From positions 8,265-72,264 of the forward strand of contig JAZDEY010000082.1 in NCBI GenBank assembly GCA_043808325.1: DNA of 64,000 nucleotides. The letters are read 5' to 3'. The stretch comes from JAZDEY01 sp043808325 [NCBI: Candidatus Eiseniibacteriota bacterium]. Lineage in GTDB: Bacteria > Arandabacterota > Arandabacteria > Arandabacterales. Positions 8,465 through 22,323 of this stretch are shown here, piece by piece (the first letter of the stretch is position 1; each line of letters opens with the position of its first letter). Made by a program: the position numbers and the translations under genes. The notes under the pieces are model-generated. The model had not been told where the DNA came from. It saw only the letters and a program-made list of their open reading frames with translations, and did not search any database.

Positions 8465-9766
8465 CTATCGCATGAAGATCAATTGGACCAGAACAAAAAC
8501 CGGCAACAGCACGATCAATGAGAACTTCCAGACATAGGAGAAGAAGTGCGGCATCTTGATGTTGTTGTCTTCGGCCACCGCTTTTACCAGGAAGTTCGGG
8601 CCATTTCCGATATAGGTCATGCTCCCAAAGAACACCGCACCTACGCAGATTGCCCTCATGAGCTCTTGGGGAATTCCGGCAACCATGCTCGAGGCCTGTT
8701 TCCCCAGGCCGAGCGCAAGCGAGTAAAAGGCGACTGCCGTTGGAGTATTGTCCAGGACGCTGCTCAGACTGCCGGCAGCATAGTAGAATTGACGGGGCAG
8801 ATTCACACCAAGATGCTGTGCGTTGTACTCCAGGTAAAGCAGGCAGGGCACCATTGTCACGAAGATCCCGAAGAACAGATAGGCAACCTCTTTAATCGGT
8901 CCCCAGGTGAAATTGTTGGAGACGCGGGCCAATCGTGGAGTCAGAGCCAACGAGAGAAGTGCCATGGCGACGAGCGCCAGCTCCCTCACGAATCGGTAGT
9001 ATGGGTTTCGGTGAATCACGCTGACGTATTGTTCATTCAGGAAGGCAACTGCAAGCACCACCCCCACAAGCCAAACGAAATTCAACTTGCCTTCGAGCTT
9101 GAGCGGGCGAATGTTGGTCTCGTCCCGCAGTACCGCCTGTGGGCTCTCCTTCCTATAGTAATAAGAATCAACGAGGAAGTACACCACGAGGAGCAAGCCA
9201 TTGACGAACAGCCACTCCGGGAAGAGTCTCAGAAACCAGGTAAACGGCGTTCCCCGCAGGTACATCATGAACAGGGGCGGATCGCCAAGCGGGGTCAGCA
9301 GGCCGCCGCAGTTGGCAACTATTCCTATGAAAAACAGGATCGTGTGGATCTTGAACTTCCTTTCCTGGTTTGTTTTGATCACAGGGCGGACCAGCAGCAT
9401 TGCGGCCCCGGTGGTTCCCATAATCGACGCCAGCACTGCACCCGTGCCAAGAAACGCCGTGTTGATGATTGGTTTTGCCTCGATGTCCCCGCCGAGAGAG
9501 ATGCCTCCGGTTATGGTAAAGAGCGAGCCGAGCAGGATTATGAAGGGCAGATAGTCAAAAACCAGCGTGTCAAAAAGCCTCTCATGCATTCCACTTGCCA
9601 AGAGGAAAACGGCTATCGGCAGGCTGAGAACTCCCGCAACGATGAGTTTGTTCCTATTCTTCTCCCACCAGTGATTCCAGACGAGCGGAAAGATCGCGAT
9701 GGATAGCAGCATCAGGACAAATGGCAGAAGACTTATGAGCGGGGCATCGAATCTCTCAGCATTCAC
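8465..9766 (-). CDS. NhaD-like Na+/H+ antiporter (ion transporter superfamily)
   Basis: Polytopic inner-membrane protein with about 11 predicted hydrophobic segments. The pattern 'IMGTTGAAMLLVRP' and 'ANCGGLLTPLGDPPLFM' is characteristic of NhaD-type sodium/proton antiporters within the ion-transporter superfamily, and 'GSMTYIGNGPNFLVKAVA' is the second family repeat. Start is GTG 9766, with GAGG five bases upstream. It is the last gene of the minus-strand hydrogenase-Mrp run, 55 bases after the maturation protease, so it may be cotranscribed. A sodium/proton exchanger here would couple the sodium gradient of the Mrp-type complex to proton motive force. That link is inference. Confidence 0.85.
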   Translation of the reverse strand: MNAERFDAPLISLLPFVLMLLSIAIFPLVWNHWWEKNRNKLIVAGVLSLPIAVFLLASGMHERLFDTLVFDYLPFIILLGSLFTITGGISLGGDIEAKPIINTAFLGTGAVLASIMGTTGAAMLLVRPVIKTNQERKFKIHTILFFIGIVANCGGLLTPLGDPPLFMMYLRGTPFTWFLRLFPEWLFVNGLLLVVYFLVDSYYYRKESPQAVLRDETNIRPLKLEGKLNFVWLVGVVLAVAFLNEQYVSVIHRNPYYRFVRELALVAMALLSLALTPRLARVSNNFTWGPIKEVAYLFFGIFVTMVPCLLYLEYNAQHLGVNLPRQFYYAAGSLSSVLDNTPTAVAFYSLALGLGKQASSMVAGIPQELMRAICVGAVFFGSMTYIGNGPNFLVKAVAEDNNIKMPHFFSYVWKFSLIVLLPVFVLVQLIFMR

Positions 9767-9821
9767 GGCTGCCTCAATATCTCCTGACCAACGCGGCCAC
9801 CCTCACTACTCTCGACCGTCA

Positions 9822-10313
9822 TCAGCCTACGGCGGCCTCCCAGGGTGATTCCTTGATCGCCGAATTGATCACTTCGGCGAGGTCCCGCCCGGCCTCGGCC
9901 ACGACCTCGCTCAAGGGCTTCCCGAACTCAAGGCTCTCAGGCTGGACCGCAAGAAAGAAGGTCTTGGCGCCCGTCTGGGCCTCGATGTAATCCGTAAATA
10001 TGGTCAAGCGCGCTGCGCGAGTCGGAAGCCCGCCACAGACGATATCCGCCCTGGCCACGATGCGGACTTCGCCGGGCCGCCCGCCGAAGTCGGCGGCATC
10101 GATCACGACGACCTTCTCAGGCTTCATGCGCGCGATCACCCCCAGATAATTCTCGGGAGTCTCGCCGCAGTCGATAACCTTAACACGGCTGGTGGCCTTG
10201 AGGAGCGATCCGACAAGGGGTCCGACCCCGTCATCTGCCCGCCAGGTGTTTCCCACGCAAGCCACAACCACCCGGCCGGTGAGCATGCGTGCAAGAAAAG
10301 GGTGATCGACCAT
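9822..10313 (-). CDS. Hydrogenase maturation protease, HycI/HyaD family
   Basis: Nickel-dependent endopeptidase that clips the C-terminal tail of a [NiFe] hydrogenase large subunit after cofactor insertion. The family signature 'VGNTWRADDGVGPLV' and the second acidic ligand in 'KVVVIDAADFGG' are present. The 163-residue length is typical. It lies 58 bases after the last complex subunit. The large subunit at 16.8-18.0 kb has a 42-residue tail beyond its final Cys motif (CxxCTER), so a substrate is present in the same run. No hypABCDEF genes lie in the window, so the rest of the maturation set must be elsewhere. Confidence 0.9.
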   Translation of the reverse strand: MVDHPFLARMLTGRVVVACVGNTWRADDGVGPLVGSLLKATSRVKVIDCGETPENYLGVIARMKPEKVVVIDAADFGGRPGEVRIVARADIVCGGLPTRAARLTIFTDYIEAQTGAKTFFLAVQPESLEFGKPLSEVVAEAGRDLAEVINSAIKESPWEAAVG

Positions 10314-10371
10314 ACGACTCTAAGCAGCTCCAGCCGTGGCTTTGCGCTTCTTTGCCCCTCCTCAGGCTTCT

Positions 10372-10980
10372 CTAAGCCTTGAGCTGGACCTGGCGCCTGC
10401 ACTTCGGGCAGAGAATCCTTATGACATCCTGCCTGTCAGGCTCCAGATGCTCCTCACGCGGGGGAACATCGGCGAGGAGTTTCGAGTCCTTGAGGGCTGA
10501 AAGAATCAACGTAGGGTTAGAATAGGCGAGGGGACCGAGCCTGTCGGCGACCCACCTTATATGTTCAGCGGCTCCTACGACGTCGCCGCACATTTCACAC
10601 ATCACAAGTTCCTTCTCGAGACCGGTCTTGGCGTCCTCTCGGTTGAAGTAAACCGTGTCATAGTCCGTGGTCAGCTTGATGCCTTTCTTGGTGATGCAAT
10701 TGGCCTCACACTGACCGCACTGGATGCACTTGTCGTACCGCAGGGTGATCGTCCGCTTCCTGGTCTTGGGATCGTCCTCCACCTGGATGTCATCGGCCGG
10801 GCAGACCATGGCGCAGGCCCCACAGCCCACACAACCCTCCTCATCATACTTGGCCTTACCCCGGAAACGCTTCTGCGGCTCAGATGGCTTTCTGGGGAAT
10901 GGATGCGTGTATGGTCCCGTGAACAGGGCCGTAAACGCTTCCTTCAAGATCCTACCCTGAAGAATGCCGGGTAACTTCAT
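10372..10980 (-). CDS. Hydrogenase ferredoxin-like subunit (NuoI/EchF/MbhN type)
   Basis: Iron-sulfur subunit expected to pass electrons between the soluble donor side and the small subunit of the membrane hydrogenase. Two [4Fe-4S] motifs are visible: 'CVGCGACAMVCP' and 'CIQCGQCEANC'. The 202-residue protein is longer than MbhN because it adds a C-terminal half with two more Cys pairs, 'CEMCG' and 'CPKCRR', which could form a zinc ribbon or rubredoxin-like site. Start ATG 10980 overlaps the mnhG stop codon by four bases (ATGA) and has GGGGAGG upstream. A much longer in-frame extension reaching 11235 has no similarity and runs inside mnhG. Confidence 0.88.
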   Translation of the reverse strand: MKLPGILQGRILKEAFTALFTGPYTHPFPRKPSEPQKRFRGKAKYDEEGCVGCGACAMVCPADDIQVEDDPKTRKRTITLRYDKCIQCGQCEANCITKKGIKLTTDYDTVYFNREDAKTGLEKELVMCEMCGDVVGAAEHIRWVADRLGPLAYSNPTLILSALKDSKLLADVPPREEHLEPDRQDVIRILCPKCRRQVQLKA

Positions 10981-11339
10981 TTGTCCTCCCCAAGAGGATA
11001 CTTGATCTCCTGCGCGCGTTCCTTGAACTTGTTGACCACACTCTTGTCCCAAAGTCTCACACCTGCCAGATATGATCCTCTGACAAGGGCATGTGCGGCA
11101 GTGGGCGAGGTAAACAACACGAAGACAGCGCAGAGCCCGGCCTTTATGGCGATCGCCGGCGAAGCCGTGACCACAGCGGTCCCAGCGAGCACAAGTATCG
11201 TGCCGAGGGTTACGCACTTCGTGGCGGCCTGGCACCTATTGTAGACGTCCGGCAGTCGCAAGAGACCCACGCAGCCGACGAAATCGAAGAAGGCCCCTAT
11301 GCTGATGAGGATGTAGCCTATGATCACGTTGCTACTCAT
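10977..11339 (-). CDS. mnhG: Mrp antiporter subunit G
   Basis: Small membrane subunit with three hydrophobic helices, matching MrpG/MnhG. The marker is 'LLRLPDVYNRCQAATKCVTLG', close to the family 'RLPDVYtRlHAAtKatTLG'. The 120-residue form starts at ATG 11339 with AGGGGAGGGGG just upstream. It overlaps mnhF by eight bases and the ferredoxin-like gene by four, evidence of translational coupling. In Mrp complexes subunits E, F and G form the outer block tied to Na+ transport. In Mbh-type hydrogenases the same trio is MbhA-C. Confidence 0.9.
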   Translation of the reverse strand: MSSNVIIGYILISIGAFFDFVGCVGLLRLPDVYNRCQAATKCVTLGTILVLAGTAVVTASPAIAIKAGLCAVFVLFTSPTAAHALVRGSYLAGVRLWDKSVVNKFKERAQEIKYPLGEDK

Positions 11340-11595
11340 CAAACCCCCTCCCCTCAAGATGTTTCGCTAGCGCAAGCGTTCCTATGAAACTGACAAGGGA
11401 CCAAGCAATGGCGAGGTTGACGAAGTAGTCTTTGCGCGTGATTAGCACCAACAGGCACACAAAACCCACAACCACAACGCCAAGTATATCGATGGCAACG
11501 GCCCGGTCGGGGGCGCTTGGGCCGTGGCCGATTCTGTAGAGACACATGAAGCAAGCTGCCGCAAGAACGCCTGCTATCACGAAGATGAACGTCAT
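11332..11595 (-). CDS. mnhF: Mrp antiporter subunit F
   Basis: An 87-residue protein with three predicted transmembrane helices, matching MrpF. The conserved 'GPSAPDRAVAIDILG' is the family hallmark (GPt.aDRvvaldtl). It overlaps mnhE by four bases upstream and mnhG by eight bases downstream, as expected for subunits made in fixed ratio. Role: structural and ion-path component of the sodium-translocating membrane arm. Confidence 0.92.
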   Translation of the reverse strand: MTFIFVIAGVLAAACFMCLYRIGHGPSAPDRAVAIDILGVVVVGFVCLLVLITRKDYFVNLAIAWSLVSFIGTLALAKHLEGRGFDE

Positions 11596-12101
11596 TCGAA
11601 TATCCTCCCCAGCAGCTTCTCAAATCGTCCGGATATGTGCTGCGTGGCCTCCTCTACGTCCTCCGCTTTGACGTATATCCAATGGACGTAAAGATAGCCG
11701 TCGTCGGTCAGGTCAACGGTGATCGTACCCGGCGTCAGAGTTATGGAGTTGGCAAGCATTGTCCTGCCCGCATTGCTTTTCAGGGATGTCTTGATCTTGA
11801 CTATTCCCGGCCTTATCGGCAGATCCGGATGGATGACCCTATAGACCACGTCCAGGTTGGCGTGGATCATGGCCCACAAGAAGGTGGGAATATAGACCAG
11901 GAACCAGAATATGCGGGTCGGGATACCCTTCAAGCGGACCCCTCCCGGGACCTTGTCGCCAAAGAAGATCCCTACGAAGAGGGCGACAAATACGCCCAGC
12001 ACCGTACTCTGTACATCGAAATCATTCGTGCCGGGATAGAAGGGCCACACCAGCAGGAACCATAGCACAAATGACACAAGTGTAAGGGTCAGCCTTCTCA
12101 A
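11592..12101 (-). CDS. mnhE: Mrp antiporter subunit E
   Basis: A 169-residue membrane subunit of the MrpE/MnhE family: two to three N-terminal hydrophobic helices followed by a soluble domain with 'IVKIKTSLKSNAGRTMLANS' and 'ITLTPGTITVDL', both diagnostic. The start appears to be TTG 12101, four bases after GGAGGAGA, since no ATG is suitably placed. It lies 12 bases after mnhD and overlaps mnhF by four bases. Confidence 0.92.
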   Translation of the reverse strand: MRRLTLTLVSFVLWFLLVWPFYPGTNDFDVQSTVLGVFVALFVGIFFGDKVPGGVRLKGIPTRIFWFLVYIPTFLWAMIHANLDVVYRVIHPDLPIRPGIVKIKTSLKSNAGRTMLANSITLTPGTITVDLTDDGYLYVHWIYVKAEDVEEATQHISGRFEKLLGRIFE

Positions 12102-12113
12102 GCCATCTCCTCC

Positions 12114-13598
12114 TTACATCCCCAATACCCGGGTCGCATACTCAAAGCCTTCTTGAAGAGCCTTAGCCGCCGGCATGAAGAAGCCGTCTTTGACCTGCGG
12201 AAGCCACAGCAATCCCATGAGCGTGGCGAGAACCGCAAATCCCACCATGGAGATTCGCATGAAAACCGGCACTTCATGCGCTGAAGCGTAAGCTTCCTTG
12301 GGTTCTCCGAAGAAGGTTCTCCGCTGCATTCTCATAAATGCGGCAAGCGTGAGAATGCTCACCCCTGTTGCCCATGCGGCATAACCGTATTTCTCCGCCT
12401 GCACGGCCGCAATGATTATGAAGAGCTTGCTCCAGAAACCGCTGAAAGGCGGTATCCCTGCAATTGACATAGAGCCTATGAGCGAGGTTGCTCCTGTGAC
12501 CGGCATCTTGTCCCGCAGGGCGCCCATTTTGTTCATGTCCCGCGTCCCGGTCGAATACTCGATAGCGCCGGCGTTGAGGAACAACAAGGACTTGAAAACC
12601 GCGTGATTCATGAGATGGAAAAGAGCAGCCGCGATTCCCAGTCTTGTGCCGAGGCCAAATCCAAGCACAATATATCCAACCTGGCTTATGCTCGAATACG
12701 CCAGGAACCGCTTGATGTCGTCCTGCCCCATCGCCAAGAGCACACCTACGACCATCGAGACAGTACCAAGCACAAGCAGTATCGTGGAGATAAGCGGCGT
12801 CATGCCCATCGCATTGAACAGGATCCTTGCCATGGCATACAGCCCGATCGTCTTGATGAGGACCCCCGAGAGCATCGCCGATATGGGAGCGGGGGCGGAC
12901 GGGTGGGCATCCGGCAGCCATGAGTGGAACGGAATCAGTGCAGATTTAAGTCCAAAACCGGCAATAAATAGAGCAAGTGCAAAGAAGAAAAGGGGCTGAG
13001 TATTGCCAGCCAGGACCCTGGAGATCTGAGCCAGATTGAGGTTGCCGGTCAGGGCGTAGGTTATTGCGATCCCTAAGAGGATGAGCGTAGAGCCCACACT
13101 CCCGAGGACGAGATACCTGAACGAGGCCTCGAGCTCCTCATGCTGGCAGCCAAAGGCAACAAGTGCGTATGAAGCAATTGACGCAATCTCAAGAAAAACA
13201 TAAAGATTGAAGATGTCGCCCGTCAGCGCAACCCCGAGCATTCCCCCGACCATCAGCAAGAACAGACTGTAGAACCGGGATTTCGACGTGAACCTGTCCA
13301 TGTACTGGATCGAATAGACCGTCACGAGGAAGGAGACAAGCGTGATCGTGATCAGCATGACAACCGAAGCGCTATCCAGCACGAGATTGATCCCGATGGG
13401 TATCCCGGCCCTCGGCAGCCACCCTCCCATCCAGTAAACACCGCTCTTGCCGATCACAGAAAGTGCCATCAGGAAAAGCACGAGCGTCGTCACATTTCCG
13501 AGCACATCACAGAGCCGCGGATTCTTTCTTCCAACCAGCGGAATGAGAAAGCCGGCCCCCAGGGGGATCGCAACAAACAACGGAAGAATCTGCATCAT
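12114..13598 (-). CDS. mnhD: Mrp antiporter subunit D (NuoN/NuoM-like ion-pumping subunit)
   Basis: A 494-residue polytopic subunit of the antiporter-like family shared by Mrp and respiratory complex I, with about 14 helices. The ion-path residues are kept: TM5 glutamate 137 in 'YVFLEIASIASY', the TM7 lysine in 'GLKSALIPFHSWLPDAH' and the TM8 lysine in 'SGVLIKTIGLY'. It is thus a likely active ion-translocating unit. It sits in the usual Mrp order C-D-E, eight bases after mnhC and 12 before mnhE. It is the second antiporter-type subunit of the cluster; the other (15009-16832) lacks the TM5 glutamate. Confidence 0.93.
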   Translation of the reverse strand: MMQILPLFVAIPLGAGFLIPLVGRKNPRLCDVLGNVTTLVLFLMALSVIGKSGVYWMGGWLPRAGIPIGINLVLDSASVVMLITITLVSFLVTVYSIQYMDRFTSKSRFYSLFLLMVGGMLGVALTGDIFNLYVFLEIASIASYALVAFGCQHEELEASFRYLVLGSVGSTLILLGIAITYALTGNLNLAQISRVLAGNTQPLFFFALALFIAGFGLKSALIPFHSWLPDAHPSAPAPISAMLSGVLIKTIGLYAMARILFNAMGMTPLISTILLVLGTVSMVVGVLLAMGQDDIKRFLAYSSISQVGYIVLGFGLGTRLGIAAALFHLMNHAVFKSLLFLNAGAIEYSTGTRDMNKMGALRDKMPVTGATSLIGSMSIAGIPPFSGFWSKLFIIIAAVQAEKYGYAAWATGVSILTLAAFMRMQRRTFFGEPKEAYASAHEVPVFMRISMVGFAVLATLMGLLWLPQVKDGFFMPAAKALQEGFEYATRVLGM

Positions 13599-13605
13599 GC
13601 TCGCT

Positions 13606-13953
13606 CTAACCTCTTAGCCTCCGGATTTCCTGTATGTCGTAAGTGCCGTATCGTTCATATAGCCGCATGGCAATCGCTACCGTCATTGCCGTGACGCCGA
13701 CCCCGATCACGATCGCGGTAAGAACAAGCGCCTGGGGAATGGGGTCAACCGAGCTGCGCGCGAAGGTGTCGGGTGGGATCGTGGTATCCATAATAGGCGC
13801 GATCCCCTTCAGCCGGTATCCGATCATGACAAGAAAGAGATTGACCGAATTCTCAAGAACAACAAGACCGATTATGATCTTGATGAGATTTCTCTTCACC
13901 ATCACACCGTAAAGCCCGACCATGAAGAGCATAAGACACAGTGCATAGAGCAT
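13606..13953 (-). CDS. mnhC: Mrp antiporter subunit C (NuoK-like)
   Basis: A 115-residue protein with three hydrophobic helices, homologous to MrpC and NuoK. The conserved 'LVVLENSVNLFLV' contains the TM2 glutamate used in the ion path, and 'DPIPQALVLTAIVIGV' is the family's third-helix signature. It lies 12 bases after mnhB and seven before mnhD. In the complex it would sit between the antiporter subunits and the hydrogenase membrane anchor. Confidence 0.93.
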   Translation of the reverse strand: MLYALCLMLFMVGLYGVMVKRNLIKIIIGLVVLENSVNLFLVMIGYRLKGIAPIMDTTIPPDTFARSSVDPIPQALVLTAIVIGVGVTAMTVAIAMRLYERYGTYDIQEIRRLRG

Positions 13954-13965
13954 GGCTATCTCCTT

Positions 13966-14448
13966 CTATTCTACCTTCTGCTCCCCCTCGTAGACTACCC
14001 TAAGAAGGATCAGCAGTATGAAAAGCAAGAACAGCGAACTGGCAACTTTAAGGGCAATCGCAATATTACAGAGCGGAATGATGCCGCCACTGACAAGATG
14101 AAACGGCCGGCCTATATGCAGTACCTTGACCGGGAAATTGCCGAAGAACACACCCCCGAGGCTCGGCAACATGCCCAGAAGCGCGATCGTAAGGAACATG
14201 AGGCCCCCGATACTGTCGATCTCAGCAACGATGTTCATGCTGAGGATCTTCGGTGCTCCAGTCTTGCCGTAGGAGAGGACCAGCATCACAAAGGCAAGGG
14301 CCAGGATGACGCCGCCGGCAAAGCCGCCACCAGGGGTGAGGTGACCGTATGCAACGATGTAGATGCCAAAGACAAGAATGAAGCCTTTAACCCAACCCGC
14401 CATGGTCTTCACTATCGATGTCATGCCCTGCGGTTTCACTCCTGCCAT
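13966..14448 (-). CDS. mnhB: Mrp antiporter subunit B (MnhB domain)
   Basis: A 160-residue membrane protein with four helices matching MnhB/MrpB. The signature 'IYVAYGHLTPGGGFAGG' (family: i..hGhlsPGGGFqgG) is clear. It overlaps the preceding MbhD/E-like gene by 13 bases and is followed by mnhC after 12 bases. Together with that neighbour it reproduces the C-terminal MrpA plus MrpB block that contacts the hydrogenase or antiporter core. Confidence 0.92.
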   Translation of the reverse strand: MAGVKPQGMTSIVKTMAGWVKGFILVFGIYIVAYGHLTPGGGFAGGVILALAFVMLVLSYGKTGAPKILSMNIVAEIDSIGGLMFLTIALLGMLPSLGGVFFGNFPVKVLHIGRPFHLVSGGIIPLCNIAIALKVASSLFLLFILLILLRVVYEGEQKVE

Positions 14449-15005: not shown

Positions 15006-15008
15006 TTC

Positions 15009-16832
15009 TCACCTCAGTAGAATAAGCATGATAATGAGCCAGCCGGCAAGTGCCCACGTAAGATAGTCCGGAAGGTTCCCGGTATGAATTGCTCTGAATC
15101 CCTTGACGAAATAGTAGGCGAGTCGACGGCCTATCTCGTACAGATCAAGAGATCTCCTCTGGGCGGCGCCATACACGCTCTTGAAAAAGCCCATGTCACT
15201 CACGGTCCGGTAAAAGTCCGTTCCGGTCACCCTGGTCTCGCTAGGCAGGATTTCACCCCCGACATAGGCTGAATCCACTCTTACCGCCTTCAGCCTGCCC
15301 GCCAAGTAGATTACCAGACCAATCACGATGCCGACCATGATCATAACCGTGGCGAGCCCTGGACTCCACCAGCCGAGCCACTGGCTCACGCCCGGGACCA
15401 CTAGCGAAGGCACAGCACTAACCGCCGGTATTATAAACGGTTTGAGAACCAACGAATAGGCAAAAACGCCGAACGCAACGCAGAGCGCCGCCAGCACGAT
15501 CATGGGCAGCACCATTGTGAGGCCGACTTCCCTGGGACCCGCGCCACGCTTGGCACGGACACCGAGAAAGACCGAGTGAAGCACTTTCACGAAGCTTGCG
15601 AGGGTAAGTGCTGAACCAAACAGCGCGGCAACGAGCCAGATCACCCACAGATGACCGCCATTCTTGGACATGCCTATTATTCCCTGGTAAACCATCCACT
15701 TTGAGGCAAAACCATTGAAGGGAGGAACACCCGATATCGCCAGGGACGCTATCGCACATGCTCCGAAGGTTATCGGCATGTACCTCGCAAGCCCGCCGAG
15801 GCTGTCCAGATCGGTTGTGCCCTCCCGTTTCTCCACAGCGCCACTGCAAAGGAACAGCAACCCCTTGTAGATGGCATTATTGAGCATGTGGAAAAGTCCG
15901 CCGGCTATACCGATGGGATTCATCGTCCCTATCCCTATCACCATGTACCCAACCTGGGAAACGGCATGGAAGCCGAGCAGCCGCTTCATGTCGTGCTGGA
16001 CAAGCGCCATCATCACCGCCGCGATGATCGTGAACGATCCGACGATAAGCAGGAGCAGCATCATCGCCGGCGTCAGGTTGAAAACGTGAAGCGAGATGCG
16101 GGCGAGCAAGTATATACCCAGAAGCTTGTCCACCGACGCCGGCAAGAAGGCAACCGCTGATGCGGGGCCCCATTCAGCCGCGTCGGGTATCCAGCTGTGG
16201 AAGGGCATGGCGCCGGCTTTGGCAAATGCTGCACAGGCAAAGAGAATGAAAGCAAAACAGGAAAGCCGCGTGATCGTCGGGATGGGATCTTGCGACAGGC
16301 TTGTTGAATCCGTCATCATCCAGAGAATCGCAACGCCAAGCGCCATCAGAGCGTCGGTGCCGCCGACTATTATCATGGTCTTCTTAGCAGCAGCCGAGGC
16401 CCTAGCCCCCGCAACACCTATCAGCAGATAAAGAGTGAGACCCAAAAACCCCCAAAAGCTGAGGAGCATGACGAGATCGTTAGAAAGGACGGCGCCGTAT
16501 GCTGCTCCAAGGGAGAGAAGGGAATAGGCATAGTACTGTTTGAGATTCGGCTTGCCCCTCATAAATCCGAGGGAATAGACCATCATCAGGAGGCCAAAGA
16601 AACCTATCGAGAGAAGAACAAACGATGATAGATAGTCCACCTTGAAGAGCGTCATCCCAAACATCTTGCTCTCGAGCCACCCCTTCCGGAACAGGACTAT
16701 CGTGAGCCAGAAGGTCACCCCCACGATGATGACGGCGATCGTTTCCTTGACGCCCTTGAGGGCATCCGGGATAATCCTCACAAGGAGGCCGGCAATCATC
16801 GGGATAAGAATCGTGTAGCCCACTAGATCCAT
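15009..16832 (-). CDS. NuoL/MrpA-like antiporter subunit with altered ion-path residues
   Basis: A 607-residue polytopic membrane protein of the proton-conducting transporter family, similar in length to NuoL and the N-terminal half of MrpA. The TM7 lysine is kept ('FAKAGAMPFHSWIPDAAEWG', Lys205), but the usual TM5 'FWE' reads 'SFWGFLGLTLYLLIG', with Gly128 where the essential Glu is expected. The TM8 'HAATMVKAG'-like block reads 'FLPASVDKLLG'. A C-terminal amphipathic stretch follows the last helices. It overlaps the hydrogenase large subunit gene by 10 bases. It may use another carboxylate, or act mainly as a structural or coupling subunit. Confidence 0.87.
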   Translation of the reverse strand: MDLVGYTILIPMIAGLLVRIIPDALKGVKETIAVIIVGVTFWLTIVLFRKGWLESKMFGMTLFKVDYLSSFVLLSIGFFGLLMMVYSLGFMRGKPNLKQYYAYSLLSLGAAYGAVLSNDLVMLLSFWGFLGLTLYLLIGVAGARASAAAKKTMIIVGGTDALMALGVAILWMMTDSTSLSQDPIPTITRLSCFAFILFACAAFAKAGAMPFHSWIPDAAEWGPASAVAFLPASVDKLLGIYLLARISLHVFNLTPAMMLLLLIVGSFTIIAAVMMALVQHDMKRLLGFHAVSQVGYMVIGIGTMNPIGIAGGLFHMLNNAIYKGLLFLCSGAVEKREGTTDLDSLGGLARYMPITFGACAIASLAISGVPPFNGFASKWMVYQGIIGMSKNGGHLWVIWLVAALFGSALTLASFVKVLHSVFLGVRAKRGAGPREVGLTMVLPMIVLAALCVAFGVFAYSLVLKPFIIPAVSAVPSLVVPGVSQWLGWWSPGLATVMIMVGIVIGLVIYLAGRLKAVRVDSAYVGGEILPSETRVTGTDFYRTVSDMGFFKSVYGAAQRRSLDLYEIGRRLAYYFVKGFRAIHTGNLPDYLTWALAGWLIIMLILLR

Positions 16833-18040
16833 ATCTTGTCCATCCTCGAATTATACTTCTCCATGAGCTTCCGGGTTTTCTCATGCGATAGCCTGAGAAG
16901 ATCCTTGCCGGTCAGCAGCTGCCGGCCGCTGCCGGCATCAACCACGAGCGTCCGCTCCGTACAACAATAGCACGGGTCAATCGCTGCGAGCGTTATGGTG
17001 GCATCCGACACGGTATAGCCCACACAAGCGCGCTTATTTGTCGGCACATTCATGAAACTCGGCGCGCGGATCTTGTATCTCACGGGGCGGTTGCTACCGT
17101 CCGACCGGGTATAATGTATGACCTCCCCTCGCGGAGCTTCATGGGTTCCGATGCCTTCACCGGGGGGAATCTCGGTGAGGTTCGCATCGATGCCGTCCTT
17201 CACCTCGAGGAGCTTCCGGCAGCACTGCTTGCATATCTTGACCGACTCGAGGATCTCCAGGACCCGCACCACGAGCTTATCGAAGACGTCGCCCCTTTCG
17301 GTGACGATCACGTCGAAGTCGACGTCGCCATAGGCCGCGTAAGGATGGTCCCTCCGCACGTCTATGGGAACACCGGAAGCTCTCGCCGTCGGCCCAAGAG
17401 CCCCGAGCTCGATGCAATCCTGCTTGGTAAGGACGCCGATGTTCTTGGTCCTGGCCTGAAGCACGGGATCGGAGAGCGCAACATCGCGGAACATCAAGGT
17501 GGGCTTTACTAGGCTGTCGAGGATACGCACTGCCGAAGCGATATCCTCATCGGCAAAGTCACGCCGGACACCGCCGGGCTTCATCATGCCGTAATGATTG
17601 CGGTTACCGGTCAGGAGCTCAAAGAGATCCAGCACGGGTTCCCTATACTTCCAGGCCCACATCCACACCGTGTTGTAGCCCAGGAAGTGGCCCGCCAGCC
17701 CCAGCCACAGAAGGTGGGAGTGAACCCTCTCCAATTCCCCGATGAAGGTTCTGATGTACTTGGCTCGCTCGGGAATCTCAACGCCGGCAACGTCCTCGGT
17801 CGCCATCACGCCGGCGAAGGGGTGCGACGAAGAGCAGATGCCGCAGATCCGCTCGACCAGGAAAGGAATCTGATCATAGCTCAGACCCTCAGCCAGCTTC
17901 TCGATACCGCGATGGTTATAGCCTATCTCTATCTCAAGCTCGACCACTTTCTCACCCTCGACGTGGAGCTTGAAAAACTCGGGCTCCTCCTGCAGAGGAT
18001 GATAAGGTCCGATCGGAATTACAGTCTTACTTTTGGCCAT
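16823..18040 (-). CDS. Group-4 [NiFe] hydrogenase large subunit (EchE/MbhL type)
   Basis: Catalytic subunit of a membrane-bound, energy-converting hydrogenase. All four NiFe ligands are visible: Cys66 and Cys69 in 'RICGICSSSH' (L1 motif with downstream His73) and Cys357 and Cys360 in 'DPCYCCTER' (L2 motif). NuoD, and Mbx/Mbs-type relatives, lack these four ligands, so this is read as a true hydrogenase. It has 405 residues from ATG 18040, preceded by GGAGGGG. The 42 residues after the L2 motif would be the tail removed by the protease at 9822-10313. It overlaps the NuoC-like gene by 14 bases and the NuoL-like gene by 10. Subgroup (4d, 4e or another) cannot be fixed without a tree. Confidence 0.93.
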   Translation of the reverse strand: MAKSKTVIPIGPYHPLQEEPEFFKLHVEGEKVVELEIEIGYNHRGIEKLAEGLSYDQIPFLVERICGICSSSHPFAGVMATEDVAGVEIPERAKYIRTFIGELERVHSHLLWLGLAGHFLGYNTVWMWAWKYREPVLDLFELLTGNRNHYGMMKPGGVRRDFADEDIASAVRILDSLVKPTLMFRDVALSDPVLQARTKNIGVLTKQDCIELGALGPTARASGVPIDVRRDHPYAAYGDVDFDVIVTERGDVFDKLVVRVLEILESVKICKQCCRKLLEVKDGIDANLTEIPPGEGIGTHEAPRGEVIHYTRSDGSNRPVRYKIRAPSFMNVPTNKRACVGYTVSDATITLAAIDPCYCCTERTLVVDAGSGRQLLTGKDLLRLSHEKTRKLMEKYNSRMDKIWI

Positions 18041-18491
18041 TGTCCCCGCCCCTCCAATCCTTCCAATCCTTCCGCAACGGGTGATTGTCCGTAGGCCAGT
18101 CATCCGACAGCAAGAGATGTCTCATGTCCGGGTGATTCCGGAACTCAATTCCCAGCAGTTCGTGCATCTCCCGCTCGATCCACTCGGCCGCGGGCACCCG
18201 GATCGCTATCGACTCGATCGAAGGCTTATCCGGATCGAGTATCACACGGAGATTGAGGAAACGGTGCGCCCGGTCAAGCGGAAAGTGATACAGTATCTCC
18301 ATGCCGCCTACCATGTGCATCCCCGTAGCGATCGAGAAGCGGCAACCCAGTTCCTTATATAGATACTCGGCCACGTCCGGTAGCCCTTTGGGATCGACCG
18401 TGATATAGGTCCGGCCGGGGCTCTTATCGTAAACTTCGATGATCGCGGCTCCGAACCTGGTCTTAAGACCCTGCAGAACCTCGTCCGCCAT
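18027..18491 (-). CDS. Hydrogenase NuoC-like subunit (EchD/MbhK type)
   Basis: A 154-residue soluble subunit homologous to the 30-kDa subunit of complex I. The family block near the C-terminus is complete: 'WIEREMHELLGIEFRNHPD' followed by 'LLLSDDWP' and 'HPLRKDW'. It probably docks the large and small hydrogenase subunits at the membrane. It lies 13 bases after the small-subunit gene and overlaps the large-subunit gene by 14 bases, in the typical B-C-D order of complex I relatives. Confidence 0.92.
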   Translation of the reverse strand: MADEVLQGLKTRFGAAIIEVYDKSPGRTYITVDPKGLPDVAEYLYKELGCRFSIATGMHMVGGMEILYHFPLDRAHRFLNLRVILDPDKPSIESIAIRVPAAEWIEREMHELLGIEFRNHPDMRHLLLSDDWPTDNHPLRKDWKDWRGGDNGQK

Positions 18492-18504
18492 CTAATCCGT
18501 CCTC

Positions 18505-18936
18505 CTATTTCTTGCTCGCCGCAAGCTTGGCCTGGACCAAAGCCACAACGGCCTGAATCATGGCCTCCGGCTTGGGTGGGCATCCCGCAATGTAAGCATC
18601 AACCGGGACAACCTCATCAAGCGGCCTGGTCTCATTATATGATTTCCCAAACATCTCCGTAGAGCAAGAACAATTGCCTAAGGCAATCACAAAACACGGC
18701 TTGGGCGCCTGAGCGATCACCCGCTTGAGTACCTTGCTTGATTTGCGGTTCATCGAGCCCGTAACCAGGATCGCATCCGCGTGGCGGATGCTCCCGACCA
18801 GCTGAATCCCGAAGCGCTCAAGATCAAAGCGGGGAGTGAGAGCGTCAAGTATCTCGATGTCGCAGTTATTGCACGGGCTGGCTGCGAGATGAAAGACCCA
18901 GATCGATTTCGTGAGCGCCTTAAGCTTTAGACTCAT
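18505..18936 (-). CDS. [NiFe] hydrogenase small subunit (NuoB/EchC/MbhJ type)
   Basis: A 143-residue subunit holding the proximal [4Fe-4S] cluster that feeds the NiFe site. Cluster ligands appear in 'CNNCDIEI' (CxxC near the N-terminus), 'ALGNCSCS' and 'IAGCPPKPEA'. The family length is 140-160. The N-terminal 'SIWVFHLAASPCNNC' is typical of Ech/Mbh members. It lies 10 bases after the NuoH-like gene and 13 before the NuoC-like gene. Confidence 0.93.
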   Translation of the reverse strand: MSLKLKALTKSIWVFHLAASPCNNCDIEILDALTPRFDLERFGIQLVGSIRHADAILVTGSMNRKSSKVLKRVIAQAPKPCFVIALGNCSCSTEMFGKSYNETRPLDEVVPVDAYIAGCPPKPEAMIQAVVALVQAKLAASKK

Positions 18937-18946
18937 ACCCTATTCC

Positions 18947-19882
18947 TCACAAACCCAGGAAAGCCAGAACCACCGCCGCAACACCGAAGGGTGTCACCAT
19001 CGCCCAGAAGAACTTCATTACCTGATCGATCCTAAGTCTAGGATTAGTGTTTCTTATGAGCGTCATCAACAGAAGTATCACCAAGTATCCGACCACCCCG
19101 TAAACCAGACTTAGCCAGGATGATCTCCAGTTCAAACCACCGAGGAAAAGCACAATCATAAAGAGCGGCATCACGAAAGCCATCATCCACTGGGTCAGCT
19201 TGAAGAGCCCTAGCGGGATACCGGAATACTCTATGTATGCGCCACCCATGATCTCGGTCTCCGCCTCAGGAGCATCAAAGGGAACCTTGCCGAGCTTCGC
19301 TTGAGCAACAAGGAGACAGATAAGAAAGGCAATCACGCCGGAAATTGAGGCGATTATTGGCCGCCCAGCGGCCTGATACTGTATGATTTCGTCGAGCCTT
19401 ATCGTGTTTCCCGCCTTGATTATAGCGACCAGTATGGCAAGCACGAAAGGAAGCTCGTAGGAGAGAATCATCTTCATTTCCCTGGAGCCACCCAACGATG
19501 CAAGCGGATTGCCCGATGCGAACGCCCCCAGAATCACGGCCTGAGACGGGATGGTAAGAAGATAGATCACGACGATGAGATCGCCGACGAAGGTCTGAGA
19601 TGGAAATACGATTGTCCTCAGGAGGATCGCGCTAACTACCGCGACAGCTGCAAGCGCGAAAAGCGGTGCCGACAGGAAAAGGAAACGTGACGCGCCCTCG
19701 GGCACGATGACCTCCTTGCCCAAGAGCTTGACGAAGTCATAGACCGGCTGGAAGAATGGCGGGCCAACCCTCCACTGTATTCTGGCCGTGATCTTGCGGT
19801 CGAACCAGTGAGCGAACATGCCGACCACGGCCGCAATCACGAAACCCACAACCAGGAATCCCATCGCTTGAAGAATGCTCAT
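18947..19882 (-). CDS. Hydrogenase membrane anchor (NuoH/EchB/MbhM type)
   Basis: A 311-residue protein with about eight helices, homologous to NuoH, which anchors the hydrogenase and connects it to the ion pathway. Diagnostic segments include 'DRKITARIQWRVGPPFFQPV', 'KLGKVPFDAPEAETEIMGGA' (acidic loop contacting the quinone/proton-path equivalent) and 'TNPRLRIDQVMKFFW'. It follows the polyferredoxin gene by nine bases. With the antiporter subunits it forms the membrane arm. Confidence 0.94.
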   Translation of the reverse strand: MSILQAMGFLVVGFVIAAVVGMFAHWFDRKITARIQWRVGPPFFQPVYDFVKLLGKEVIVPEGASRFLFLSAPLFALAAVAVVSAILLRTIVFPSQTFVGDLIVVIYLLTIPSQAVILGAFASGNPLASLGGSREMKMILSYELPFVLAILVAIIKAGNTIRLDEIIQYQAAGRPIIASISGVIAFLICLLVAQAKLGKVPFDAPEAETEIMGGAYIEYSGIPLGLFKLTQWMMAFVMPLFMIVLFLGGLNWRSSWLSLVYGVVGYLVILLLMTLIRNTNPRLRIDQVMKFFWAMVTPFGVAAVVLAFLGL

Positions 19883-19891
19883 ACGAACCTG

Positions 19892-20374
19892 CTACCTCTT
19901 CCAGACGTCACATTTCACTACCAAATGCTCGCCACCCTGGTGGAGCTTTTTCGCCTCATCGGGCTCGATCTCTACGAACTTGATTGCGCCCAGAGGACAG
20001 GTCTTGACACACAGCGGGTCGTCAGCTGGAGCGATCCTGCCCAGGCAGTAATCGCACCTTGAGAGCCAGTACGGGATCAGTTCCGGGTAAATCGTGCCAA
20101 AGGGACAGGCCAGAGCGCAGGATTTGCAGCTTATGCATCTCAGGTTGTGCCGCCTGAGGACGCCGCCGGGCTCCTTCTCGAGGGCCTCCTTGGGGCAGGC
20201 ATTGATGCAGTTCCCCGATTCGCACTTTCGGCAGATGACGGCATAGGCCGCCAGCTCTCGAAGACTAGTTATGCCGTCGTTGGCCGGGTGGTAGGGGTAA
20301 CTACACCGGGTCGTGCACTGCTCCTTGGCCTCGCACCCGTCGCATATGTCCAGATCGATGAAGATCTTTTTCAA
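19892..20374 (-). CDS. Four-cluster ferredoxin-type electron carrier (HycB/CooF-like)
   Basis: A 160-residue iron-sulfur protein with about 16 cysteines arranged as four [4Fe-4S] binding sets. Visible groups are CDGC with C and C, 'CRKCESGNCINACP', 'CISCKSCALACP' and 'CDYCLG' with 'CVKTCP'. This layout matches HycB, HydN and CooF, which carry electrons into membrane hydrogenases. Its place between the beta/gamma input pair and the NuoH-like anchor suggests it wires the diaphorase to the hydrogenase. It is 18 bases after the gamma-like gene and nine before the anchor gene. Confidence 0.9.
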   Translation of the reverse strand: MKKIFIDLDICDGCEAKEQCTTRCSYPYHPANDGITSLRELAAYAVICRKCESGNCINACPKEALEKEPGGVLRRHNLRCISCKSCALACPFGTIYPELIPYWLSRCDYCLGRIAPADDPLCVKTCPLGAIKFVEIEPDEAKKLHQGGEHLVVKCDVWKR

Positions 20375-20392
20375 CTCGGCGACCTCACAAAA

Positions 20393-21226
20393 TTAATCCC
20401 AAAGGGCCGGCTTGCCCTTGATAAGGTCATAGGTCATCACCGGGCCGTCCCTGCACACCATGTATTCGCCCAGCATGCAATGCCCGCATTTGCCTATCCC
20501 ACAACTCATGTTCTTTTCCATGGAGAGATAGATCACGTTATCGGGAAAGCCTAGCTCCACCAGCTTCAAGGTGGCGAACTTCATCATGACGGGCGGGCCG
20601 CAGACCACCACCAGGCTGTTTGCCATATCGAGCCCGAGGTCCTTGACCACGGTCGTCACCACGCCCACGTTGCCTTTCCAGGTGGGATCGCCCACGTCCA
20701 CCGAGAGCCGGAATTCGATCCTGGATGGGTTTATCTTGGGCCACTGCTCCAGGATCTGGGACTTATAGATGATGTCCTGCGGCGCTTTGGCGCCGTAGCA
20801 GAAGAGGATCTTCTTGAAATCGTCAAGCCGGTTACACAGTGCCAGGAAAAGTGACCGGAGCGGAGCAAGCCCGACACCACCCCCGACGATCAAGATCTCC
20901 TTGCCTTTGAAGTGGTCCAGGGGATAGCCCTTGCCCATCGGGCCCCTGACGCCGACCGTCTCGCCCTTCTTCATAGCGTGGAGCACACCCGTTACCTTAC
21001 CCGCCCTCATTATGGTGAACTCCAGGGTCTCCCTGACCCGAGGATTGGAGGAGGGCGTGAAGGGAGCCTCACCCAGGCCCGGCACGGTGACTTCCATGAA
21101 CTGACCGGCCTCAAAGGGAATCTCCTCACTGGGCCTCAGGACAAAGGTCTTGATCGTAGAGCTTTCGTCGATCACCTCTAGGATCTCGGCAAGTATCGGC
21201 TTATAGATGTCTTTAGCTACCGACAT
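20393..21226 (-). CDS. Sulfhydrogenase gamma / AsrB-like FAD-NAD(P) reductase subunit
   Basis: A 277-residue flavoprotein of the ferredoxin-NADP reductase superfamily. It has the FAD block 'APFTPSSNPR', the pyrophosphate/NAD region 'LIVGGGVGLAPLRSL', the nicotinamide motif 'VVVCGPPVMMKF' and a C-terminal [2Fe-2S] site 'CGIGKCGHCMLGEYMVC'. This architecture is that of AsrB and of the gamma subunit of Pyrococcus sulfhydrogenases. Start ATG 21226 overlaps the preceding gene by 10 bases. Likely role: exchange electrons between NAD(P)H and the iron-sulfur chain of the complex. No siroheme sulfite reductase subunit (AsrC) is near, so sulfite reduction is unlikely. Confidence 0.9.
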   Translation of the reverse strand: MSVAKDIYKPILAEILEVIDESSTIKTFVLRPSEEIPFEAGQFMEVTVPGLGEAPFTPSSNPRVRETLEFTIMRAGKVTGVLHAMKKGETVGVRGPMGKGYPLDHFKGKEILIVGGGVGLAPLRSLFLALCNRLDDFKKILFCYGAKAPQDIIYKSQILEQWPKINPSRIEFRLSVDVGDPTWKGNVGVVTTVVKDLGLDMANSLVVVCGPPVMMKFATLKLVELGFPDNVIYLSMEKNMSCGIGKCGHCMLGEYMVCRDGPVMTYDLIKGKPALWD

Positions 21227-22323
21227 ACTTCCTTGAGCACCTTTCTCATGTCTATCTTGCCCGGGCAGCCGGCTATGCATCTGCCGCAGCCGGTGCACCC
21301 GTCGAAGCCATAGTTCTTCGGAAAATAGTCGAGCTTATGATAGTACCTGTGCTTGAAGCGCTCGACCAGGTGTTTGCGGGGATTTGCGCCCCCGGCGACT
21401 TGCGCGAAACGCTTATAGGCGCAGGCATCCCACATCTTGAGCCGCTTGTAGCGGTCCCGGAATCTCTCATCATAGAGGAGAAAACACTGGCAGGTGGGGC
21501 ACAGGAAAAGGCATGCGCCGCACTCGACGCAGGTCTCAACATGCTTGGCCCAGGCGGCGTCGTCGTACGCTCCGGCAAGCAGCTCCGGCCAGGTCTTGGG
21601 CGGCTTGTACTCCGCCGACTGTTTCTCGACCGACTGCAGCGTCTTCTGCCGGATCGCCTGGCGCTCCGCGAGATGCTTATCGGTCGCGGGCTTGAATACA
21701 TCCTTATTGGCGTCGGCAGCTTCCTTGCCCTTGTCGCTTCCGACTTCGGCAACGTAGCCGCCTTCGAGCTTGGTCAGGTTCAAGTCAAAACCCTTCTCGG
21801 CATAGGGCTTCACACCGACCAGCACGCAAAAACAGGTCTCCAGAGGCTCGGTGCAGTCGGTGCTCACGACAAAGCCTTTCTTGCGGCGTTCCTCATAGAA
21901 GGGATCCTTGAAATCGCCCTCCAGGAAGACCTTGTCGAGGGCTTCGATAGCCCTCACGTCGCAGGCCGATGCCCCCACTATTGCAAAGGGCCTGGATTCT
22001 TTGAAGGAGCTCTCTTTGGAAGGGTACTCAGCAACCTCTTCGAGCAAGGAGAAGAAGAAGGGTTTAAGCGGCTGAAATGATCTTACGCCGGGATAGGTAA
22101 ACCCGCCGGCCGCAGCGTAGGGCTTTATCCTTACTCGCCCCTCGTCATCCTTGGTGGTCACAAACAGGTCGCCGCGCTTCTCAAACCAGGACAAGAACCT
22201 GGGGAAGTCCGAATCAGTTACGTAGTAGGCCGTCATCCACCTTTTTCCTGTCTGTGAATCGGCGTAGCCTTCAACCGCGCCGATCTTGTCCCACCGAATC
22301 GGTGAACATATATTGTCGCTCAC
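21217..22323 (-). CDS. Sulfhydrogenase beta / AsrA-like iron-sulfur subunit
   Basis: A 368-residue protein of the 4Fe-4S dicluster family that pairs with AsrB/gamma subunits. Two cluster motifs lie in the C-terminal third: 'CVECGACLFLCPTCQC' and 'CTGCGRCIAGCPGKIDMRK'. The N-terminal two thirds carry the family region with 'IVGASACDVRAIEALD' and 'VSTDCTEPLETCFC', which has further cysteines. It is the first gene of the run; the start is GTG 22323, about 47 bases after a good -10 element. It probably relays electrons from the flavoprotein to the polyferredoxin encoded two genes downstream. Confidence 0.9.
   Translation of the reverse strand: MSDNICSPIRWDKIGAVEGYADSQTGKRWMTAYYVTDSDFPRFLSWFEKRGDLFVTTKDDEGRVRIKPYAAAGGFTYPGVRSFQPLKPFFFSLLEEVAEYPSKESSFKESRPFAIVGASACDVRAIEALDKVFLEGDFKDPFYEERRKKGFVVSTDCTEPLETCFCVLVGVKPYAEKGFDLNLTKLEGGYVAEVGSDKGKEAADANKDVFKPATDKHLAERQAIRQKTLQSVEKQSAEYKPPKTWPELLAGAYDDAAWAKHVETCVECGACLFLCPTCQCFLLYDERFRDRYKRLKMWDACAYKRFAQVAGGANPRKHLVERFKHRYYHKLDYFPKNYGFDGCTGCGRCIAGCPGKIDMRKVLKEVCR

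What the first reader, a model, noticed from the sequence alone, without database searches (positions are those of the whole stretch)
8465..22323. [NiFe] group-4 hydrogenase, complete Mrp antiporter and beta/gamma diaphorase in one packed gene run
Some 18 minus-strand genes, most overlapping or within 30 bases, encode an AsrA/AsrB-like (sulfhydrogenase beta/gamma) pair, a four-cluster ferredoxin, NuoH-, NuoB-, NuoC- and catalytic NiFe large subunits, NuoL-like and MbhD/E-like subunits, MnhB-G, an MbhN/EchF-like ferredoxin, a HycI protease and an NhaD-like antiporter. Known Mbh complexes take reduced ferredoxin directly; known beta/gamma pairs serve soluble sulfhydrogenases. Joining them predicts an ion-pumping hydrogenase that exchanges electrons with NAD(P)H, with reverse electron flow or H2-driven NAD(P)+ reduction as options. 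I know of no characterised complex with this composition.
Basis: partly seen in the sequence, partly recalled or inferred. Interest (0 to 1): 0.8.

Follow-up and report, generated by a model that had tools for sequence, protein, structure and literature searches.

The report
Ion-pumping hydrogenase with NAD(P)H module
A run of bacterial genes appears to build one membrane machine that trades electrons between hydrogen gas and the cell's common electron carrier NAD(P)H while moving ions across the membrane; the gene set is widespread in uncultured bacteria and was noted once in print, but I found no test of what it does.

Summary
Eighteen minus-strand genes at 8465-22323 encode an AsrA/AsrB (sulfhydrogenase beta/gamma) pair, a HycB-type four-cluster ferredoxin, NuoH/B/C, a catalytic [NiFe] large subunit, a complete Mrp set with two antiporter-like subunits, a second ferredoxin and a HycI protease. 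Two details change. The second ferredoxin is HycF-like rather than MbhN-like, and the last gene (NhaD-like) matched nothing in 80 related loci. The AsrAB link is not chance: of 53 relatives with enough upstream DNA, 51 keep AsrA and 52 AsrB. In 116 genomes of one phylum (Omnitrophota) this type of AsrA occurs in 24 of 26 carriers of the large subunit and 0 of 90 others, and it forms its own clade apart from other AsrA copies. Best reading: one ion-pumping NAD(P)H-linked hydrogenase, in which AsrAB plugs into an FHL-type HycB-HycF wire in place of formate dehydrogenase. The gene set is already in print for one Saganbacteria genome (2019, 'enigmatic'), and an apparent orthologue is published as HydDB group 4g, 'ferredoxin-coupled (putative)'. 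So it is a variant of a known kind, biochemically untested as far as my searches show. Direction, NAD versus NADP, and whether ferredoxin also enters stay open.

The parts
21217..22323 (-). AsrA / sulfhydrogenase beta-like iron-sulfur subunit
   Evidence: NCBIfam ShyB 5e-56, HydB 2e-45, AsrA 5e-33, all below their cut-offs; 9nez_B 1.8e-43; model matches SHI beta 9nez_B, TM 0.78/0.84; 15 cysteines in 54/54
20393..21226 (-). AsrB / sulfhydrogenase gamma-like FAD, NAD(P)H, [2Fe-2S] subunit (start taken as the ATG at 21226; the ORF runs to 21298)
   Evidence: NCBIfam AsrB 4e-61, below its cut-off; 9nez_C 1.9e-51; four [2Fe-2S] cysteines 58/58
19892..20374 (-). HycB/CooF/DmsB-type four-cluster ferredoxin
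   Evidence: Pfam Fer4_11; 16 motif cysteines, the first quartet kept less well (53-64 of 64) and the other three in 61-65 of 65; HycB 5e-8 among stronger matches to other four-cluster proteins
18947..19882 (-). NuoH/HycD-like membrane anchor subunit
   Evidence: Pfam NADHdh 5e-69
18505..18936 (-). NuoB-like hydrogenase small subunit, one [4Fe-4S]
   Evidence: Pfam Oxidored_q6; C22, C25, C89, C119 in 72/72
18027..18491 (-). NuoC-like subunit
   Evidence: Pfam Complex1_30kDa
16823..18040 (-). [NiFe] hydrogenase large subunit (start taken as the ATG at 18040; the ORF runs to 18103), with C-terminal extension
   Evidence: MBH large subunit 3e-88, HycE 6e-79; NiFe ligand cysteines 79/79
15009..16832 (-). 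NuoL/MbxH'-like antiporter subunit (MrpA N-terminal role)
   Evidence: Pfam Proton_antipo_M; matches 6u8y_X over residues 7-602
14436..15005 (-). fused MbhD-MbhE (MrpA C-terminal part)
   Evidence: Pfam MbhD and MbhE
13966..14448 (-). MnhB/MrpB
   Evidence: Pfam MnhB
13606..13953 (-). MnhC/MrpC
   Evidence: Pfam Oxidored_q2
12114..13598 (-). MnhD/MrpD, second antiporter-like subunit
   Evidence: Pfam Proton_antipo_M; NCBIfam PRK08376 3e-124, below its cut-off
11592..12101 (-). MnhE/MrpE
   Evidence: Pfam MNHE
11332..11595 (-). MnhF/MrpF
   Evidence: Pfam MrpF_PhaF
10977..11357 (-). MnhG/MrpG
   Evidence: Pfam PhaG_MnhG_YufB
10372..10980 (-). HycF-like two-cluster ferredoxin with CxxC...CPxC quartet
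   Evidence: NCBIfam PRK12387 7e-28, below its cut-off; best fold matches are HycF, 7z0t_F TMt 0.84; 12 cysteines 48/48
9822..10313 (-). HycI maturation protease
   Evidence: Pfam HycI; TIGR00072 over its cut-off, TIGR00142 hycI 1e-29 below its cut-off
8465..9766 (-). CitMHS_2-type transporter (NhaD-like); neighbour, not taken as part of the complex
   Evidence: Pfam PF16980; no match in 80 related loci

Best explanation
One membrane complex: an ion-translocating [NiFe] hydrogenase that exchanges electrons with NAD(P)H. Proposed path: NAD(P)H - FAD and [2Fe-2S] in AsrB - [4Fe-4S] clusters of AsrA - HycB-type ferredoxin - HycF-like ferredoxin - NuoB-like cluster - NiFe site in the large subunit. 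Redox work at the NiFe site is coupled through NuoH to two antiporter-like subunits and a complete Mrp set. Shown here: the gene set, cofactor ligands, conserved order, co-occurrence and the separate AsrAB clade. Inferred: physical assembly, the path, ion coupling and reversibility. With NADH near -280 mV, H2 production at more than trace H2 would have to be driven by the ion gradient. At high H2 the reverse reaction (H2 to NAD(P)+) could yield about 26 kJ per 2 electrons at 1 bar, enough for at most one to two ions (my arithmetic).
For: Gene order kept in relatives with about a dozen phylum-level labels given by depositors. Of 53 loci with at least 4.7 kb upstream, AsrA in 51 and AsrB in 52. 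In 116 genomes of the phylum of G017 (its record is labelled Omnitrophota), cluster-type AsrA (over 365 bits) in 24 of 26 large-subunit carriers and 0 of 90 others; in 21 of the 24 it lies on the same contig, about 4-5 kb upstream. Cluster AsrA and AsrB split cleanly from 14 and 15 other copies, support 0.976 and 0.873. Distance correlation with the large subunit: AsrA 0.77, AsrB 0.82, about the level of NuoB 0.76 and HycF-like 0.83. The HycF-like cysteine quartet is in 48/48; in E. coli FHL this C-terminal part of HycF contacts HycB (PMC9474812 passages). A Rex-like gene (Pfam-tested in one of the six) lies upstream of AsrA in 6 of 80 loci; that Rex senses NADH/NAD+ is recalled.
Against: No transcript, protein or activity data. 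NAD(P)H use rests on homology. 4g enzymes are described as putatively ferredoxin-coupled (PMC5037454). Rex lies near only 6 loci, and Rex-operator-like sites upstream of AsrA are no commoner than in shuffles. In L003, one of the closest relatives, AsrA and the large subunit are both interrupted by in-frame TGA. Four loci with enough downstream DNA lack MrpB, MrpC, MrpE, MrpF and MrpG matches (L010, L019, L045, L078). One genome (G136) has the AsrA type but no large subunit found; its AsrA lies 1.3 kb from a contig end.
Confidence: 0.62

Rival explanations
1. Three-way hub: reduced ferredoxin enters at the ferredoxin subunits and NAD(P)H at AsrAB, and both feed H2 production together (confurcation), or ferredoxin-driven pumping also reduces NAD(P)+.
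For: Two polyferredoxin subunits are present; HydDB lists 4g as putatively ferredoxin-coupled. An electron-bifurcating enzyme family with a non-canonical mechanism is reported (PMC9304861, title and start of abstract in listings).
Against: No second flavin-type subunit among the families found in the cluster. The HycF-like surface has the quartet that in FHL lies in the part touching HycB, so an MBH-type ferredoxin site may be covered (inference).
Confidence: 0.2
2. Ferredoxin-only Mbh-like hydrogenase; AsrAB is a separate soluble NAD(P)H:ferredoxin or diaphorase enzyme that is merely co-transcribed.
For: The 2019 report proposes an Mbh-like function for its related cluster (PMC6349859). AsrAB also occurs away from hydrogenases: L101, L106, L107 and L108 show no large subunit beside it, and in L102 it lies beside Hdr-like genes.
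Against: Near-perfect linkage and a dedicated clade. The 13 other group 4-like places in the same sample (438-464 bits) have no AsrA match within 50 kb, and the two read (L090, L091) show no AsrAB.
Confidence: 0.12
3. Sulfite, polysulfide or sulfur reduction uses the AsrAB pair, with the hydrogenase as electron donor.
For: Family names only (AsrAB; sulfhydrogenase).
Against: AsrC over cut-off in 0 of 20 genomes (no control over cut-off); no sulfite-reductase-type gene in the run.
Confidence: 0.04

Closest known systems
Group 4 NiFe + Mrp + cooF + asrA/asrB region of Saganbacteria RX5A (PMC6349859)
   Same: Same kind of gene set; nearest relatives given as Zixibacteria and Omnitrophica (passages)
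   Different: Also lists an unclassified molybdopterin oxidoreductase, for which I saw no recurrent neighbour among the 14 groups printed (by eye); called enigmatic; no broad survey and no NAD(P)H claim in the passages seen
HydDB group 4g
   Same: L038 carries the genome label of Ca. Saelkia tenebricola MAG_3300035698_749, published with one hydrogenase, group 4g, Mrp-linked (PMC8542988 passages); its only PF00374 match is in this cluster
   Different: 4g is a loosely clustered class of undetermined role, putatively ferredoxin-coupled (PMC5037454 passages); not all of it need carry AsrAB
MBH of Pyrococcus furiosus (group 4d)
   Same: Large subunit closest among solved structures; Mrp-type membrane arm
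   Different: Here an AsrAB + HycB-type input, a HycF-like ferredoxin and two antiporter-like subunits; that MBH has one is recalled
E. coli formate hydrogenlyase (group 4a)
   Same: HycB-HycF type wire and HycE-like large subunit
   Different: AsrAB in place of formate dehydrogenase; Mrp arm
Group 3b sulfhydrogenase SHI
   Same: Beta and gamma subunits
   Different: 3b enzymes are soluble with their own small and large subunits (recalled); AsrAB copies beside such large subunits fall outside the cluster clade

Membership tests
[NiFe] hydrogenase group 4 | Both CxxC NiFe ligand pairs in a NuoD-like large subunit with Nuo-like membrane subunits | tested here: met
   (79/79)
HydDB group 4g | HydDB classifier assignment | not testable with these tools
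   Indirect only: the genome of L038 is published as carrying a 4g enzyme
MBH (group 4d) | Direct ferredoxin input through MbhN, no NAD(P)H module | tested here: not met
   AsrAB and HycB-type genes present; ferredoxin subunit fits HycF better than MbhN (TMt 0.84 against 0.48)
Formate hydrogenlyase (group 4a) | Formate dehydrogenase subunit with the complex | tested here: not met
   none in the gene run; no FdhF-like group by eye among the 14 recurrent neighbour groups printed
Group 3b sulfhydrogenase | Soluble complex with 3b-type small and large subunits beside AsrAB | tested here: not met
   large and small subunits are group 4 type with membrane subunits; separate AsrAB-hydrogenase sets seen elsewhere
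Anaerobic sulfite reductase AsrABC | AsrC present | tested here: not met
   none in the run; 0 of 20 relatives' genomes over cut-off, without a control over cut-off
Mrp antiporter | Equivalents of MrpA to MrpG | tested here: met
   MrpA as NuoL-like + MbhDE, then B, C, D, E, F, G
Ion-translocating hydrogenase | Measured ion transport coupled to H2 turnover | not testable with these tools
   none

The most novel reading that the evidence does not exclude
A large clade now filed under 'ferredoxin-coupled (putative)' group 4g is really a family of gradient-coupled NAD(P)H:proton oxidoreductases, a hydrogenase counterpart of complex I in which a sulfhydrogenase beta/gamma module replaced formate dehydrogenase on an FHL-type wire. 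It would let many uncultured fermenters make H2 from NAD(P)H by spending ion gradient instead of by electron bifurcation, or reduce NAD(P)+ with H2 while pumping.
Probability: 0.5. Interest if true: 0.72.

Novelty: new variant of a known kind. Interest (0 to 1): 0.52.

Why it matters
How NADH electrons become H2 without a strong donor is an energy problem for fermenters, and the known answers rest largely on electron bifurcation (recalled). A conserved, NAD(P)H-fitted, Mrp-linked hydrogenase across many uncultured phyla would be another answer and would change the function assigned to part of group 4g. It also shows exchange of electron-input units in the complex I superfamily, and it is directly testable.

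Tried and rejected
Chance neighbourhood: rejected. A soluble hydrogenase as the true partner: in 8 of 20 genomes there is no other PF00374 match. In G001, G002 and G003 the second large subunit lies in stretches with no AsrA/AsrB match (L081-L083). I call it 3c-like by eye, from its start sequence and from MvhD- or HdrA-like ORFs near such large subunits in L083, L084 and L087 (recall, no family scan). Several genomes do hold further large subunits, and G009 holds a second AsrAB-hydrogenase set (L086).

Apparent exceptions followed up. L031 lacks AsrAB because the run is cut inside NuoH, where the reading frame joins a phosphatase-like ORF (probable contig chimera, by eye). L065/G017 has AsrA in two pieces elsewhere plus a second AsrB. 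G042 has its upstream stretch reading N, so it cannot be judged. In G095, G026 and G128 the AsrA lies on another contig, and the large-subunit run reaches a contig end in each. L003 counts as having AsrA, but its AsrA has two in-frame TGA at arginine positions 147 and 287 and its large subunit one at 282.

Rex operator scan: no excess over shuffles (16 of 52 with 4 or fewer mismatches; shuffles predict 15.8). Promoter/terminator scan: counts near shuffles (10 against 7.7; 17 against 13.9), not used. The AsrC search was noisy and had no control over cut-off. Caldithrix abyssi, cultivated, was checked as a possible model; its paper says none of its hydrogenases is group 4 (PMC5317091 passages). 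Passages of PMC7886697 and PMC11323493 describe other group 4 or related complexes and gave nothing on AsrAB. The MrpD distance correlation was first 0.25 (n=57), with mixed paralogues; after dropping rows under 42% identity to the window it is 0.61 (n=51), and the NuoL-like goes from 0.47 (n=68) to 0.79 (n=55). Rows shorter than 75% of the window protein were dropped before the cysteine counts. A HydDB-referenced tree was not made: reference sequences were not to hand.

Searches behind 'not characterised in print'; open-licence PMC papers only.

Full report
WHAT IS THERE. Eighteen minus-strand ORFs run from 22323 down to 8465. Family scans identify, in order: AsrA, AsrB, a four-cluster ferredoxin, NuoH, NuoB, NuoC, the large subunit, a NuoL-like antiporter subunit, fused MbhD-MbhE, MnhB, C, D, E, F, G, a two-cluster ferredoxin, HycI and a CitMHS_2 transporter. 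AsrA, AsrB and the second ferredoxin do not reach the NCBIfam cut-offs of their best-named models; their solved-structure matches are strong. Fifteen of 17 junctions overlap or have gaps of 18 bases or less. The large subunit is closest among solved structures to MBH alpha (3e-88) and HycE (6e-79). Its NiFe ligand cysteines are kept in 79 of 79 aligned sequences. In 78 of 79 the second motif reads DPCxxCT[ED]R and is followed by 31-55 residues, as expected for HycI-type processing (recalled). HycI itself matched in 26 of 45 loci with enough downstream DNA.

IS IT CONSERVED. One scan of GTDB species genomes with the large subunit gave 185 relatives, of which the best 80 were kept. The closest (77-81% identity) include a MAG labelled Candidatus Eisenbacteria. 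Others carry depositor labels from Omnitrophota, Elusimicrobia, Kiritimatiellae, Lentisphaerae, Chitinispirillaceae, WOR-3, Clostridia, Gammaproteobacteria and more. Gene order is very constant. Of 53 loci with at least 4.7 kb upstream, 51 have AsrA and 52 AsrB; of 45 with at least 7.5 kb downstream, 45 have the NuoL-like subunit, 45 the HycF-like ferredoxin and 40 MrpE. Of the other 27, one (L053) gave no large-subunit ORF and 26 had too little upstream DNA to count. The 80 are a top-scoring set, not a random sample, and L003 counts although its AsrA and large-subunit frames hold in-frame stops.

INDEPENDENT CO-OCCURRENCE TEST. In 116 genomes of the phylum of G017 (record L065, labelled Omnitrophota), large subunits of this type (25 over 680 bits, plus one partial at a contig end, G103) occur in 26. 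AsrA scores fall in two groups. Those over 365 bits occur in 24 genomes, all among the 26; none of the other 90 has one. Of these 24, 21 are on the same contig about 4-5 kb upstream and 3 are on other contigs. The two carriers without it are G017 (AsrA in two pieces) and G042 (upstream masked). In the 8 genomes held for the phylum of G001, one of the window's closest relatives, the large subunit is in 5 and the high-scoring AsrA in 6, including all 5; in G134 they lie on different contigs, and in G136 only AsrA was found.

CONTROL. The first phylum sample has 25 lower-scoring AsrA places (under 250 bits, G017's two pieces set aside). I read stretches around 9 of these 25 (L097-L105) and 3 from other genomes (L106-L108). 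Seven of the nine sit in the order AsrA-AsrB-(small)-large, which I recall as that of group 3b (in L098 the large subunit is cut by the contig end). L101 has no large subunit beside it, and L102 lies beside Hdr-like genes and a Nuo set without NiFe motifs. L106-L108 show AsrAB without a large subunit. L017 carries a second AsrAB-hydrogenase set in tandem with the cluster. Trees split cluster-type AsrA (54) from 14 others with support 0.976, and AsrB (58) from 15 others with 0.873. The 13 other group 4-like large subunits of that phylum sample (438-464 bits) have no AsrA match within 50 kb, and the two loci read lack AsrAB (L090, L091).

ALTERNATIVE PARTNERS. Across 20 genomes reached through loci (20 of the 80), 8 have only one PF00374 match, the cluster's own large subunit. 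AsrA has a single match in 14 of 20, in each case on the same contig within about 5 kb of that large subunit. AsrC reached its cut-off in 0 of 20, but also in 0 of 14 control genomes. These are mostly metagenome-assembled genomes, so absences are soft. The window's own genome is not held.

ANATOMY. AsrB keeps its four [2Fe-2S] cysteines in 58 of 58 and AsrA 15 cysteines in 54 of 54. AsrA's model (pLDDT 84.5) matches SHI beta at TM 0.78/0.84. The last ferredoxin keeps 12 cysteines in 48 of 48. Eight fit two [4Fe-4S] clusters, and the rest form CxxC...CPxC, like the metal quartet reported in HycF, whose C-terminal extension contacts HycB (PMC9474812 passages). Its model (pLDDT 82.6) fits HycF (TMt 0.84 for 7z0t_F, 0.68 for 7z0s_F) better than MbhN (0.48). 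This suggests an FHL-type input wire with AsrAB where FdhF would sit; that step is inference.

HOW IT WOULD WORK. Potentials quoted in the PMC9304861 abstract (NADH about -280 mV, H2 -414 mV standard, ferredoxin about -500 mV; listings) give about 26 kJ per two electrons for H2 to NAD+ at 1 bar (my arithmetic). At 10 Pa H2 sits near -296 mV and the margin is about 3 kJ. So the complex could pump when oxidising H2 at high H2, or spend an ion gradient to make H2 from NAD(P)H. Which direction prevails is not shown. A Rex-like gene lies upstream of AsrA in 6 of 80 loci, in five within about 330 bases and in L044 at 1.3 kb, a hint of NADH control; operator-like sites were not enriched.

AGAINST PRIOR WORK. 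[quoted passage not shown] PMC8542988 (passages) lists Ca. Saelkia tenebricola with a single hydrogenase, group 4g, Mrp-linked; its main text has no hit for asrA, asrB or anaerobic sulfite; locus L038 bears that genome's label. HydDB calls 4g undetermined, perhaps ferredoxin-coupled (PMC5037454 passages), and PMC11257099 repeats this for Endomicrobium (passages). What is added here is the systematic linkage, the dedicated AsrAB clade, the HycF-type wire and hence the NAD(P)H prediction.

Noticed in passing
L057:11083-11808 and 17 other loci: A PhoU-domain gene (Pfam PF01895, tested on L057) occurs directly after the large subunit in 18 of 80 loci.
   Followed up: partly
L006, L007, L008, L044, L066, L075, upstream of AsrA: Rex-like redox repressor gene upstream of AsrA (Pfam tested on L075).
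   Followed up: partly
L003:5808-6872 and 10001-11287: AsrA holds TGA at two arginine positions and the large subunit one TGA at a leucine position; decay, strain variation or assembly error not told apart.
   Followed up: partly
L006:2612-3673 and L008:2499-3461: A second, more distant AsrA match lies about 3 kb upstream of the cluster AsrA.
   Followed up: no
G017 (L093, L094; cluster in L065): AsrA lies in two pieces in opposite orientation about 25 kb apart, the second beside an extra AsrB, while the cluster keeps only AsrB.
   Followed up: partly
L031:7977-9035: NuoH C-terminal half reads in frame with a phosphatase-like ORF; probable assembly chimera (by eye).
   Followed up: partly
L010, L019, L045, L078: Mrp-poor versions of the cluster; L010 and L019 show AsrAB, L045 and L078 are cut upstream.
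   Followed up: partly
L019, L026, L027, L033, L046, L048, L060: HypF-, HypE- and HypD-like maturation genes (named by eye) lie near the cluster in 6-7 loci.
   Followed up: no
window:7073-8278: An alkaline-phosphatase-like gene follows the run; a look-alike recurs about 8.2-8.3 kb downstream of the large subunit in L001, L002, L003 and L005 (by eye).
   Followed up: no
L102: AsrAB between Hdr-like genes and a Nuo set without NiFe motifs, possibly another use of the same input pair.
   Followed up: no
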